DNA from: Granulosicoccaceae bacterium
Lineage (GTDB): Bacteria > Pseudomonadota > Gammaproteobacteria > Granulosicoccales > Granulosicoccaceae
Assembly (NCBI GenBank): GCA_020629835.1
Contig: JAHDCO010000031.1
Location: 1-45,211 of the forward strand
Direction: 5' to 3'
DNA: 45,211 bases
Part shown: positions 40,396 through 43,860 of the stretch, in pieces
Numbering within the stretch: the first letter of the stretch is position 1
Layout of the letters: the number at the start of each line of letters is the position of its first letter
Notes under the pieces: generated by a model
What the model saw: only the letters and a program-made list of their open reading frames with translations
What the model was told of the DNA's origin: nothing
The model's database searches: none
Made by a program: the position numbers and the translations under genes

Positions 40396-42213
40396 ATGAC
40401 CAGTATGGCCATGAACAAAACACAGCAGTCAAACCTGAAGGAGCTCATTGCCAAGGGCAAGGAACAGGGGTATCTGACTTACGCAGAAGTCAATGACCAC
40501 CTACCGGACGGCATAGTAGACCCCGAACAGGTCGAAGAAATCATCGCCATGATTGGCGACATGGGCATCACTGTGGGCGAAGTAGCGCCCGATTCCGACA
40601 GTTTAAGCCTATCTGACAGCACTTCAACGCAAGATGAAGACGCAGCCGACGAGGCTGCCGCTGTACTGGCAACGGTAGACGGAGAGTTTGGTCGAACCAC
40701 CGATCCCGTGCGCATGTACATGCGCGAGATGGGAACCGTCGAACTCCTTACGCGCGAGGGCGAAATTGAAATCGCCAAGCGTATCGAAGATGGCTTACGA
40801 CAGGTATTGGCGGCGTTGGGTACCTACCCCGAATCCATCAACATGCTGCTGGAAAAATACCAACTGGTCCAGGAAGAACAGATGCGTCTGAGCGACTGCA
40901 TCGTAAACTTCATGGAAAAAGACGACACCATTCGTATCGCTGCGCCCGCTGGTGAAAAGGACGAAGAAGCACCGGAGAACACCGGGCCGGATTTGGAAGA
41001 AGTAAAGCGTCGTGTGACCGCCCTGTCGAAAGAATACGCCAAGGCGTTGAAAGCGATCGACGCAGCCGGTGGCCTGCAAGACGAGAAAGCTCAGGCGCAC
41101 ATGCAAAAGGTGTCCGAGATCTTCCTGGAATTCAAATACGCCCCCGTCTTTGTCGCAACGTTAGTGGCTGGCCTTCGTGGCCAGGTTGATCGCGTGCGAT
41201 CACTGGAACGTCAAATTCGCGATATCTGCGTTAAGACGTGCGGCATGCCGCGCATGAAGTTCATTGAAAGCTTCCCTGGCCGGGAAACTGACGAAACCTA
41301 CATCGACGACATCACCAAGGGCAGCAAAGCGGCCTGGGCTGAGAAGCTGATAAGCCAGCGCGCCGAAATAGAAATGTTGCAGCAGCGCATCTCTCAGATT
41401 GGTGTTGCCGCCATGCTACCGATCAATGAGTTGAAAGAAATCAACCGTCGCATGTCGATTGGTGAGGCCAAAGCACGTCGCGCCAAGAAAGAAATGGTGG
41501 AAGCGAACTTACGATTGGTTATCTCCATCGCGAAGAAGTACACGAACCGAGGCTTGCAGTTCCTGGATCTTATTCAGGAGGGCAACATCGGCTTGATGAA
41601 AGCGGTTGATAAATTTGAATACCGCCGTGGTTATAAGTTTTCAACGTACGCCACCTGGTGGATCCGTCAGGCCATCACCCGCTCTATTGCTGACCAGGCC
41701 CGCACCATCCGTATTCCGGTGCACATGATTGAAACCATCAACAAGCTGAATCGAATCAGCCGACAGATGCTGCAAGTCATGGGGCGCGAGGCAACGCCTG
41801 AAGAGCTGGCTGAAAAGATGGAAATGCCAGAAGACAAGATTCGCAAAGTGCTGAAGATTGCCAAAGAGCCTATTTCCATGGAAACGCCTATTGGCGACGA
41901 TGAAGATTCGCACTTAGGGGATTTCATCGAAGACCAAAACATTCTGTCTCCGGTGGATACAGCCACAGGGTTAGGTTTAGGGGAAACCACACACGAAGTA
42001 CTGGCTAGCCTTACTCCGCGTGAAGCTAAAGTATTGCGTATGCGGTTTGGCATCGACATGCCAACTGATCACACCCTGGAAGAAGTGGGTAAGCAGTTTG
42101 ACGTGACACGTGAGCGTATTCGTCAGATCGAAGCGAAGGCACTGCGTAAGCTACGCCACCCTACTCGTTCCGAGCAGCTGCGAAGCTTTTTGGATAGTGG
42201 GCAGGATCAGTAA
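40396..42213 (+). CDS. rpoD: RNA polymerase primary sigma factor
   Basis: A 605-residue sigma-70. Region 1.1 begins [24 protein letters not shown]; region 1.2 holds [21 protein letters not shown]; the acidic non-conserved region covers about residues 130-370. Region 2 is [22 protein letters not shown] through [20 protein letters not shown], region 3 [18 protein letters not shown], and region 4 [16 protein letters not shown] with the helix-turn-helix [20 protein letters not shown]. The ATG at 40396 is preceded by CGGAG; an overlapping ATG at 40392 is out of frame. The gene is followed by a CAU-anticodon tRNA. Confidence 0.96.
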
Positions 42214-42326: not shown

Positions 42327-42676
42327 GGGCCTGTAGCTCAGTTGGTTAGAGCAGGGGACTCATCAAATGGTGCGTTCATGTTGAAAGGCATGGAATGAAC
42401 GGGATGAATTCAGGGAAACCGTAGCAGTTTTTGACTCTACACGTGTAGAGTCGATTCCACAGCCGGCAATCCTGAGCCAAGCCAGGGGTACACCCTTGGA
42501 AGGTGCAGAGACTACCTGGGAACTTCAGTGTTCTTAATAACAGGCTAGAGCGTCCCGCACCCTACCCGCACTTAAGCATCGCCAGTGCGAAGGGTGATGA
42601 GATAGTCCACTCCGGCAGAAATGTTCGGGACAAGTGAATCCCTTGGTCGCAGGTTCGAGTCCTGCCGGGCCCACCA
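42327..42676 (+). tRNA. tRNA with CAU anticodon, probably tRNA-Ile2, split by a group I intron
   Basis: The two exons (42327-42363 and 42637-42676) join to a 77-nt tRNA with an encoded CCA end. The D-arm GTAGCTCAGTTGGTTAGAGC, anticodon stem-loop GGGGA-CTCATAA-TCCCT and T-arm GCAGGTTCGAGTCCTGC are all intact. The anticodon CAU could be elongator Met or the lysidine-modified Ile2. The acceptor pairs C4-G69 and C5-G68, which I recall as TilS determinants, and the GACTCATAATC...CTTGGTCGC block shared with E. coli Ile2 tRNA favour Ile2. The intron enters between positions 36 and 37, and no other junction restores the loop. Its place after rpoD is also typical of an Ile2 gene in Pseudomonas-type genomes. 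Confidence 0.92.
42364..42636 (+). ncRNA. self-splicing group I intron (Azoarcus-like, IC3 type)
   Basis: A 273-nt intron without an ORF. The 5' exon ends in U (anticodon CAU) and the intron ends in G, as group I chemistry requires. The guide GUG (42370-42372) pairs with CAU, giving the splice-site U-G wobble, and is followed at once by P2 (CGTTCAT 42373-42379 with ATGAACG 42395-42401) and GGGATG. P5 carries a perfect 20-nt palindrome (42433-42452). GCAATCCTGAGCCAAGCC matches the J4/5-P6 strand. P7 is GACTA (42510-42514) with TAGTC (42603-42607). P8 is CACCCT..CGCACT with AGTGCG..AGGGTG (42558-42596). The order and core sequences closely follow the Azoarcus tRNA-Ile(CAU) ribozyme as I remember it. 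Confidence 0.9.
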
Positions 42677-42702
42677 ATTTTTTTGCCGATTCCGGCAATT
42701 TC
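42677..42702 (+). terminator. putative terminator after the tRNA
   Basis: A seven-base T-tract directly follows the tRNA CCA, then TTGCCG (42683-42688) and CGGCAA (42693-42698) form a 6-bp stem with a 4-base loop, trailed by TTTC. Either the tRNA acceptor region plus T-tract or this hairpin could end transcription. Confidence 0.5.
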
Positions 42703-42743
42703 ACATTCAATATTGAATCTTCCTTCGATAGCGCCGCCTACGA

Positions 42744-42841
42744 GCGGTGGCGAATACTCACCGTGGACGCCACGAGTACTTCCATGTAGGCTTCGCGGCG
42801 GCATCCTTGCCGCCGAGACCACGGTGATTATTCACCTCCGC
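42744..42841. repeat. multi-hairpin inverted-repeat element (REPIN/MITE-like)
   Basis: Two 23-bp arms (42744-42766 and 42819-42841) are inverted copies of each other at 20 of 23 positions, including CACCGTGG with CCACGGTG. Between them lies a perfect stem GGCGGCA-TCCT-TGCCGCC (42797-42814), and the left arm joins a second small stem CGTGG-ACG-CCACG (42762-42774). The element is about 98 bp, non-coding, and lies between the tRNA and the MBL-fold gene. No second copy is evident in this window. Confidence 0.55.
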
Positions 42842-42894: not shown

Positions 42895-43860
42895 TTAGCC
42901 TTCAAGCATCATCTGGTAACTAGCGGGTACGTATTGAAAACCACCTTCCCCGCGCGGCGCAACGTAACCTACGGCTGGGAATGGCATGTGATAACCAACG
43001 AAAGGAATTTTATCGGCGGACAACATGCCGAAAATTTTCTTTCGAGTCGCTGCGGCCGCGGCTTTATCCATGTCAAATTTAACTTCCCAATCTGGGTAAG
43101 CTAATGACCATACATAATGATTTGCGGTGTCGGCAATCAGTAGCAATTGCTCGCCTTCGGACTCAAGCATGTACGTCATATGCCCTGGGGTATGGCCGTG
43201 TGCTGCGACGCTGGTAATTCCCGACACGACCGAATCACCGTCACCAATGAACGTCATTTTTTCAGCCAGCGGTTTTACTTTTGCGTTGAAGTTGTCCGGT
43301 GCCGTTTTCGCCCACGCATCGTATTCCATTTGACCCGTTACATAGCGCGCATTTGGAAACGTGGGCATGCCGTCGTCGCCACTTAACCCGCCGATGTGAT
43401 CACCGTGCATGTGGGTGATAACGACGATGGTGACATCTTCTGGTGCGATACCTGCGGCTTGCAAAGGCGCGGTAATACTGTTCGGATTTAGCCCTGTATC
43501 AAATAGAACAACGTCGTCTCCCGCACGAACCACAGTTGGGGTGAAAAAGAACTGATTTTTATCCGCAGGAATAAAGTTCTCTGCGCTGACCGAGGCAAAC
43601 TCTTCAGCCGATACATTCATGCCGAAGATGGTCTGCGGATCCGGTGCTGTGCGTGTGCCTGCCAGCAAAGTGGAGACTTCCATACTGCCGATATTCATGG
43701 TTTGCTTTATTGCATTAGGCATTGCTGATGATTCCTGCGCTAACAAAGCTGTGGGCGCTATACCCAAGCCGGCAGCGGCTGTTGCTGCGGCAGACCCCAC
43801 TAATAAATTTCTTCGGCCGTTATTGACCGTGCTGATTTTCGTATCTTTGCTGAACGTCAT
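42895..43860 (-). CDS. Tat-exported metallo-beta-lactamase-fold hydrolase
   Basis: A 321-residue MBL-fold protein with a twin-arginine signal: NNGRRNLLVGSAAATAAAG, hydrophobic stretch, then ALLAQ, so it is probably folded with metals in the cytoplasm and sent to the periplasm. The zinc motif is THMHGDHIGG (His150, His152, Asp154, His155); later ligands lie in AHGHTPGHMTYM and LIADTANH, and LFDTGLNPN is the usual preceding block. It resembles the lactonase/hydrolase branch of the superfamily, so hydrolysis of a lactone or ester is likely; the substrate cannot be told. It is monocistronic. The signal peptide fits the ATG at 43860. Confidence 0.85.
   Translation of the reverse strand: MTFSKDTKISTVNNGRRNLLVGSAAATAAAGLGIAPTALLAQESSAMPNAIKQTMNIGSMEVSTLLAGTRTAPDPQTIFGMNVSAEEFASVSAENFIPADKNQFFFTPTVVRAGDDVVLFDTGLNPNSITAPLQAAGIAPEDVTIVVITHMHGDHIGGLSGDDGMPTFPNARYVTGQMEYDAWAKTAPDNFNAKVKPLAEKMTFIGDGDSVVSGITSVAAHGHTPGHMTYMLESEGEQLLLIADTANHYVWSLAYPDWEVKFDMDKAAAAATRKKIFGMLSADKIPFVGYHMPFPAVGYVAPRGEGGFQYVPASYQMMLEG

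What the first reader, a model, noticed from the sequence alone, without database searches (positions are those of the whole stretch)
42327..42676. Group I intron of Azoarcus type inserted directly after the CAU anticodon
The tRNA is interrupted by a 273-nt ORF-less group I intron between nucleotides 36 and 37. The 5' exon CAU pairs with an intron GUG guide, the intron ends in G, and P2, P7 and P8 can be drawn from the sequence. tRNA introns of this class are well known in Azoarcus (a betaproteobacterium), Agrobacterium and cyanobacteria. A case in a tRNA behind rpoD in a gammaproteobacterium-like genome is unusual. Because CAU of Ile2 must be modified to lysidine by TilS, splicing has to precede or coexist with that modification.
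Basis: partly seen in the sequence, partly recalled or inferred. Interest (0 to 1): 0.85.

Follow-up and report, generated by a model that had tools for sequence, protein, structure and literature searches.

The report
Phage-like self-splicing intron in tRNA anticodon
A bacterial isoleucine tRNA gene is split, right after its anticodon, by what looks like an intact self-splicing RNA intron; the intron is common in related bacteria, but its build matches introns of phages rather than the textbook Azoarcus tRNA intron that sits at the same spot.

Summary
A group I intron (RF00028, 69.1 bits, E 1.3e-15) of 273 nt (42364-42636) splits tRNA-Ile2(CAU) between positions 36 and 37. The joined exons match uninterrupted tRNA-Ile2 genes in 5 of 27 genomes of the genus, 4 of them at 100%. 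No second tRNA-Ile2 was found in the genome. TilS is present.

Two parts of the interpretation fail. It is not of the Azoarcus (IC3) type: all 122 distinct introns compared carry a covarying helix between P7 and P3 (P7.1) that Azoarcus-type introns lack (look-alike L212) and that recurs, with the same conserved letters, in at least 120 viral contigs and the cyanophage S-PM2 psbA intron. With P7.1 cut out, the core still groups with phage introns, away from IC3 introns (100/99).

Best reading: a phage-type, ORF-less intron that occupies the Azoarcus site independently. Splicing is inferred, not shown.

The parts
40396..42213 (+). rpoD (605 aa), gene upstream of the tRNA
   Evidence: ORF; used as tblastn query; recognised as RpoD by eye, no family search run
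42327..42363 (+). tRNA-Ile2(CAU) 5' exon, ends at U36
   Evidence: matches uninterrupted tRNA genes of the genus
42364..42636 (+). group I intron, 273 nt, ORF-less
   Evidence: RF00028 69.1 bits; boundaries
42369..42372 (+). 3' strand of P1 (GGUG; the guide GUG is 42370-42372), pairs with C34 A35 U36 and intron base 1
   Evidence: P1 pairs kept in 30 of 30 rows; guide in 122 of 122
42374..42400 (+). P2 hairpin with GAAA loop
   Evidence: many two-sided changes
42400..42406 (+). P3 5' strand (partner 42551-42557)
42410..42475 (+). P4-P5 with a variable loop (P4 42410-42415 / 42470-42475); the loop holds a 20-nt palindrome 42433-42452
42482..42499 (+). P6 hairpin
42507..42514 (+). P7 5' strand AGAGACUA (partner 42602-42608)
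   Evidence: both P7 strands present in 122 of 122; coordinates
42515..42544 (+). P7.1 domain between P7 and P3: CCUG/CAGG outer helix, GAAC/GUUC inner helix
   Evidence: 464 of 464 cells paired, 45 with both sides changed; same letters in phage introns
42551..42557 (+). P3 3' strand
42558..42596 (+). P8 hairpin (42558-42563 / 42591-42596)
   Evidence: one search printed an earlier copy of the 5' letters, the position here is read
42602..42608 (+). P7 3' strand AUAGUCC
42612..42628 (+). P9 hairpin with GAAA loop
42637..42676 (+). tRNA-Ile2(CAU) 3' exon from A37 to CCA

Best explanation
This is an intact-looking, ORF-less group I intron of a phage-type (IA-like, P7.1-bearing) lineage that lives in the anticodon loop of tRNA-Ile2(CAU) in many gammaproteobacteria. 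In the transcript the anticodon CAU pairs with the intron's GUG guide to form P1, guanosine bound in P7 cuts after U36, U36 then attacks behind the final G, and the exons join to an ordinary tRNA-Ile2. TilS then makes lysidine at C34. Because C34 is base-paired in P1 before splicing, splicing most likely has to come before lysidine. Shown here: intron presence, boundaries, conserved core, P7.1, relationship to phage introns, no second copy found in the draft assembly. Inferred: splicing itself, its order with TilS, and descent from phages.
For: RF00028 hit. Uninterrupted tRNA-Ile2 in 5 of 27 genomes of the genus: 100% to the predicted spliced product in 4 (over positions 1-77 in two and 1-74 in two), 97% in one. 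The only other CAT tRNAs found in G000 are elongator and initiator Met, likewise among those found in single-contig G023. Guide, P7 strands and final G kept in 122 of 122 distinct introns. Guide and anticodon differ together across hosts: Ile2 CAU with GUG, Lys CUU with GAG (L044), Thr UGU with GCA (L186, L187, L189, L190), read by eye. P7.1 covariation. Core tree without P7.1: 27 P7.1 tRNA introns plus 17 viral introns against 27 IC3-like introns, 100/99; same split from P3 to P7 5' alone, 99/96. TilS present.
Against: No RNA data, so splicing is unproven. The trees use hand-picked rows, 92-138 short columns and some long branches, with warnings printed. The direction phage to tRNA is not shown. 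Two of the five measures do not beat the shuffles clearly (pairs with a change on both sides 3 against 1.8, 25 of 500 as high; pair types 4 against 4.1), because six of eight pairs vary little. The window intron lacks the P7.2 helix that, with a GUA linker, is used to assign subgroup IA2, so the exact subgroup is open. G000 is a 149-contig draft.
Confidence: 0.8

Rival explanations
1. It is an IC3 intron of the Azoarcus type, inherited or transferred at its usual tRNA-Ile site.
For: Same tRNA and insertion point; an RpoD-like gene also lies upstream of the Azoarcus-like L212; GAAA loops on P2 and P9 as recalled for Azoarcus.
Against: P7.1 in 122 of 122, absent from L212 and the other 26 IC3-like introns in the tree set (read); L212 falls with the IC3-like set and the window with the phage set. 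PMC4498298 (passages) says the phage T4 td ribozyme is similar to the Azoarcus and Synechococcus ones except for its P7.1/7.2 extension.
Confidence: 0.06
2. It is a chimera: a tRNA-type core that gained a P7.1 domain from a phage intron by recombination.
For: P7.1 is a place where introns take up foreign sequence (19 of 23 endonuclease genes in tmRNA introns sit there, PMC11915505 passages).
Against: The core without P7.1 also groups with phage introns.
Confidence: 0.1
3. It is a dead intron, and the tRNA is made elsewhere or not needed.
For: Some genomes of the genus have an uninterrupted gene; G000 is a draft and the tRNA lists scored only part of the candidates.
Against: Core letters conserved; no other tRNA-Ile2 found in G000 or single-contig G023; AUA codons occur (71 of 576 Ile codons in ORFs of 300 aa or more, some of which may be spurious).
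Confidence: 0.03
4. The intron is a regulatory gate that ties AUA decoding to GTP or Mg levels, beyond being a tolerated parasite.
For: Recurs in one essential tRNA in many genomes without an endonuclease gene (longest stop-to-stop frame 98 aa in 164 introns).
Against: Patchy within one genus: 10 split, 5 uninterrupted of 27 genomes; supported branches force at least 2 changes in a poorly resolved rpoD tree of 15 rows. No regulatory data.
Confidence: 0.05

Closest known systems
Azoarcus sp. BH72 pre-tRNA-Ile group IC3 intron
   Same: tRNA-Ile host (PMC3984707 passages), group I mechanism; insertion after the CAU anticodon and a GUG guide (recalled, not from a call)
   Different: lacks the P7.1/7.2 extension (PMC4498298 passages); its look-alike L212 groups with IC3-like introns; about 205 nt (recalled) against 273
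Cyanophage S-PM2 psbA group I intron (record AJ630128)
   Same: same P7.1 letters (CCUG...CUUAAUAACAGG) and a similar P4-P7 core
   Different: sits in a phage protein gene with a free-standing homing endonuclease next door (PMC6083498 passages); its P4 reads TTGCTGG, the window's TTCAGGG
Phage subgroup IA2 introns (T4 td, Pf-WMP3 DNA polymerase)
   Same: helix inserted between P7 and P3 (passages)
   Different: they carry P7.2 as well, and Pf-WMP3 an endonuclease gene; no P7.2 seen in the window intron
[quoted passage not shown]
   Same: putative group I introns in tRNA genes of gammaproteobacteria (PMC4853749 passages)
   Different: other tRNAs; the paper says it did not determine the structure or type of its rRNA and tRNA introns
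tmRNA group I introns
   Same: group I introns in a tRNA-like gene, few with endonuclease genes (PMC11915505 passages)
   Different: T-loop site; not placed in the trees here

Membership tests
Group I intron (RF00028) | covariance-model match above the gathering score | tested here: met
   69.1 against 50 bits
Group I intron (RF00028) | exon U at the 5' splice site paired with guide G; final G | tested here: met
Group I intron (RF00028) | P3-P8 and P4-P6 core with P7 | tested here: met
   P3 does not vary and P4 hardly varies inside this family, so they show little or no covariation here
Group I intron (RF00028) | GTP-dependent self-splicing | not testable with these tools
   needs RNA
Subgroup IC3 (Azoarcus type) | no P7.1/7.2 extension between P7 and P3 | tested here: not met
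   P7.1 present and covarying; contrast taken from PMC4498298 passages
Subgroup IC3 (Azoarcus type) | core sequence groups with IC3-like tRNA introns | tested here: not met
   the IC3-like set was picked by eye as tRNA introns without P7.1, plus L212
Phage-type IA introns | P7.1 between P7 and P3 | tested here: met
Phage-type IA introns | core sequence groups with phage introns | tested here: met
   100/99, 99/96; few columns; the 17 viral rows were found by the P7.1 letters, so phage introns without them were not sampled
Subgroup IA2 | P7.1 and P7.2 linked by GUA | tested here: not met
   only CUAGAG lies between P7.1 and P3 in the window; definition from PMC3428280 passages
Subgroups IA1/IA2/IC3 by subgroup model | best score among the GISSD subgroup models | not tested
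   models not on hand
tRNA-Ile2(CAU) | CAU anticodon, matches uninterrupted genes, TilS in genome | tested here: met
   Ile2 identity rests on resemblance to E. coli ileX (recalled) and on being the third CAT tRNA beside two Met tRNAs

The most novel reading that the evidence does not exclude
Phage-type group I introns independently colonised the same phosphodiester bond of tRNA-Ile2(CAU) that Azoarcus-type introns occupy in other proteobacteria, and also sit in tRNA-Lys and tRNA-Thr with a guide that matches each host's anticodon; since C34 is locked in P1 until splicing, the intron also fixes the order of splicing before lysidine and keeps the mischargeable CAU tRNA out of use until it is spliced.
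Probability: 0.45. Interest if true: 0.62.

Novelty: new variant of a known kind. Interest (0 to 1): 0.5.

Why it matters
If it splices as expected, an essential, apparently single-copy tRNA in many uncultured gammaproteobacteria depends on a ribozyme. Two different group I lineages would have settled the same bond, so tRNA introns cannot be filed as Azoarcus type by position alone. The guide-anticodon match across hosts gives a natural experiment on retargeting. It is also an annotation trap: of 26 tRNA-Ile2 loci in one set, an intron-aware tRNA finder named 22 as tRNA-Gln, 2 as Phe, 1 as Asp and 1 as Met.

Tried and rejected
Rejected: the ARAGORN tRNA-Gln(CTG) reading, since it puts the 5' cut after C and disagrees with uninterrupted alleles. 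Rejected: L116 and L133 of the pattern scan as chance hits. An earlier idea, that the intron moved from tRNA-Ile2 to tRNA-Lys and tRNA-Thr, is not borne out: one search puts L044 next to the Ile2 introns (96/75), but with viral rows added L044 goes with the viral introns (100/97) and the other six non-Ile2-set tRNA introns stand apart (97/77). The plasmid search matched only the 5' exon, in 2 records. The phage search found 82 records; the 20 listed are one crAss-like phage matching the intron core and 19 Pseudomonas phages matching the exons; the other 62 were not seen. The antisense ORF at 42562-42822 looks spurious.

Failures and dropped rows: a core-extraction script failed on 44 of 57 rows and was repeated, where L185 was dropped and L063 and L195 were left out for too few columns. 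Viral rows: 132 matches in 120 contigs, 90 with a complete core, 17 left after removing rows 82% or more alike. Not put into the trees: rRNA and tmRNA introns and several other group I matches (among them L200, L215, L216, L224-L227, L263, L267, L274, L276). L129 was left out of alignment A1 because a pattern cut it short. In some searches my coordinates for L314 missed its intron, so the empty search and that alignment row mean nothing; the S-PM2 row was read directly. The genus rpoD tree is poorly resolved. The tRNA lists scored 150 of 170 candidates in G000 and 150 of 210 in G023, so they are not exhaustive.

Literature: (open-licence PMC papers only; for the larger results only the listed top rows were seen). 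None of the listed titles and abstract starts describes tRNA-Ile2 introns of gammaproteobacteria or P7.1-bearing tRNA introns. I read passages only of PMC3984707, PMC11835236, PMC4853749, PMC4498298, PMC11915505, PMC6125680, PMC6083498 and PMC3428280. The 1992 report of the Azoarcus intron was not read.

Full report
OBSERVATION. The window holds rpoD (40396-42213) and, 113 bases after its stop, a tRNA gene split by 273 nt. The only Rfam match in the window at the gathering threshold is Intron_gpI at 42352-42628. Reading the exons gives tRNA-Ile2(CAU), cut between U36 and A37. The joined exons were searched in the own genome and the genus. Of 27 genomes of the genus, 10 have the two exons apart, 5 have an uninterrupted tRNA (100% identical in 4, two of these over positions 1-74, and 97% in 1), and in 12 neither form was found at E 1e-8 (only more distant tRNA matches, or none). 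One of the five, G015, also has a second, 55-base copy cut by a contig end. The uninterrupted genes settle the boundaries and the anticodon.

GENOME. The own genome is a 4.34-Mb draft in 149 contigs, 97% complete. Contigs of its genus mates have the lengths of named records: G018:C1, G019:C89 and G021:C7 equal CANLXI010000001 (uncultured Granulosicoccus), JALZWO010000089 (Granulosicoccus) and CALGLE010000007 (uncultured Granulosicoccaceae). The 26 tRNA matches of G000 include two CAT tRNAs, elongator and initiator Met by eye, so the split gene is the only tRNA-Ile2 found. Among the tRNAs found in single-contig G023 the picture is the same. Both lists scored only part of their candidates. TilS is encoded (157.7 bits against a cut-off of 93.6; two weaker matches stay below it).

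HOW COMMON. RF00028 matches 38 of 143 relatives, own genome included, 56 of 369 genomes drawn from the class and 34 of 398 drawn from the phylum. The tool says that its stricter filters lose some weak matches, and these counts cover all group I introns, not only this one. Of the 30 loci delivered, 26 are tRNA-Ile2 at this site. All 21 matches in the window's own family are of this kind. The 80 titles printed mostly name gammaproteobacteria or just Proteobacteria. An RpoD-like match ends within 1.5 kb upstream on the same strand in 85 of 117. Of the other 32, some are cut by the stretch held, some have such a gene further away or on the other side, and some show none although several kb were held. 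So the rpoD location is the usual one for this gene, not a sign of novelty.

ANATOMY. Consensus folding of 30 introns finds P1 to P9 apart from P7, which is a pseudoknot with P3 and cannot appear in such a fold; both P7 strands are kept in 122 of 122. P1 is CAUC/GGUG with an invariant U.G at the splice site. P2 and P9 end in GAAA in the window and most relatives. Between the P7 5' strand and the P3 3' strand lies an extra domain: CCUG and CAGG enclosing a second helix. On 60 aligned sequences (58 distinct) all 464 cells of its eight pairs are paired; 45 cells have both sides changed against a shuffled mean of 14.7, and none of 500 shuffles reaches the covariation score. Sliding the partners leaves 33 to 53% paired. 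Two other measures do not stand out: pairs with a change on both sides (3 against 1.8, 25 of 500 as high) and pair types (4 against 4.1). The outer four pairs never vary and so say nothing by covariation. A pattern for the domain fits 121 of 122 introns; the last, L159, has a longer loop and shows the same ends by eye.

NOT AZOARCUS TYPE. The 27 tRNA introns that I took as IC3-like go from P7 almost straight into P3. L208, another tRNA-Ile2 intron, has a P7-P3 insert of different letters, so the site holds more than two forms. PMC4498298 (passages) states that the phage T4 td ribozyme resembles the Azoarcus and Synechococcus ones except for its P7.1/7.2 extension. Of the two CAGG cases, L379 has a phage capsid gene and a LAGLIDADG endonuclease gene in the stretch held, L314 a DNA polymerase III alpha gene next to the motif; exon joints were not worked out. 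Cyanophage S-PM2 psbA is a named example.

TREE. With P7.1 cut out, 27 P7.1 tRNA introns stand apart from the 27 IC3-like ones at 100/99 (54 of 57 rows kept). Adding 17 viral introns keeps the split, with the viral rows on the P7.1 side (100/99). Using only P3 to P7 5' gives 99/96. Inside the P7.1 side the order is weakly resolved and changes, so the direction of transfer and the number of arrivals in tRNAs are open. The viral rows were chosen by their P7.1 letters and the tRNA rows by hand.

GUIDE AND ANTICODON. P7.1-bearing introns also sit in tRNA-Lys(CUU) (L044) and tRNA-Thr(UGU) (L186, L187, L189, L190). Their guides read GAG and GCA, each matching its own anticodon with U.G at the cut, and intron base 1 pairs as C-G or G.U with the base before the guide (read by eye). 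This supports P1. Whether they came from tRNA-Ile2 or separately is open.

MECHANISM. Two-step splicing with guanosine follows from established group I chemistry (PMC3984707, passages). Because C34 is in P1 until the exons join, lysidine is expected after splicing; that is inference. Unmodified CAU tRNA-Ile2 is a substrate of MetRS in E. coli (recalled), so keeping it unspliced until it is ready may even help.

VERDICT. Real, common in its group, and a structural variant: a phage-type intron at a site known for a different group I lineage. I found no description of it in the papers searched (calls named in Tried and rejected), which cover open-licence papers only. On checking, I withdrew the claim that the intron moved from tRNA-Ile2 to other tRNAs; the odds of the best reading did not need to change.

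Noticed in passing
L277, L279, L280, L285, L286: Group I introns in the T-loop of tmRNA genes of genomes in the same class (host gene recognised by eye); a known kind (PMC11915505).
   Followed up: no
L044: tRNA-Lys(CUU) gene with a P7.1 intron whose guide matches CUU instead of CAU.
   Followed up: partly
L186, L187, L189, L190: tRNA-Thr(UGU) genes with P7.1-bearing introns and a GCA guide.
   Followed up: partly
L208: tRNA-Ile2 intron at the same site with a different P7-P3 insert, ending in CCCG.
   Followed up: partly
L061, L257, L260: Group I introns that appear to lie in 23S rRNA genes in three genomes of the class (host gene recognised by eye).
   Followed up: no
window 42433-42452: Perfect 20-nt palindrome GACTCTACACGTGTAGAGTC in the P5 loop of the window intron; the loop varies among relatives.
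   Followed up: partly
L120 (JABDRC010000076.1): Contig of a MAG titled Halobacteria archaeon carries this tRNA intron and an rpoD 74% identical to the window's; most likely a mislabelled or misbinned record.
   Followed up: no
hits H2-H20: 19 Pseudomonas phages, phiKZ among them, carry an uninterrupted tRNA 93.5% identical to the window's joined exons; the match is annotated tRNA-Met in 11, tRNA-Ile in 1 and not at all in 7.
   Followed up: no
L314:2228-4039: Viral DNA polymerase III alpha gene with an intein domain next to a P7.1 group I intron.
   Followed up: partly
window 42895-43860, - strand: 321-aa ORF downstream of the tRNA that reads like a metallo-beta-lactamase-fold hydrolase (HMHGDHIGG motif, by eye).
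   Followed up: no
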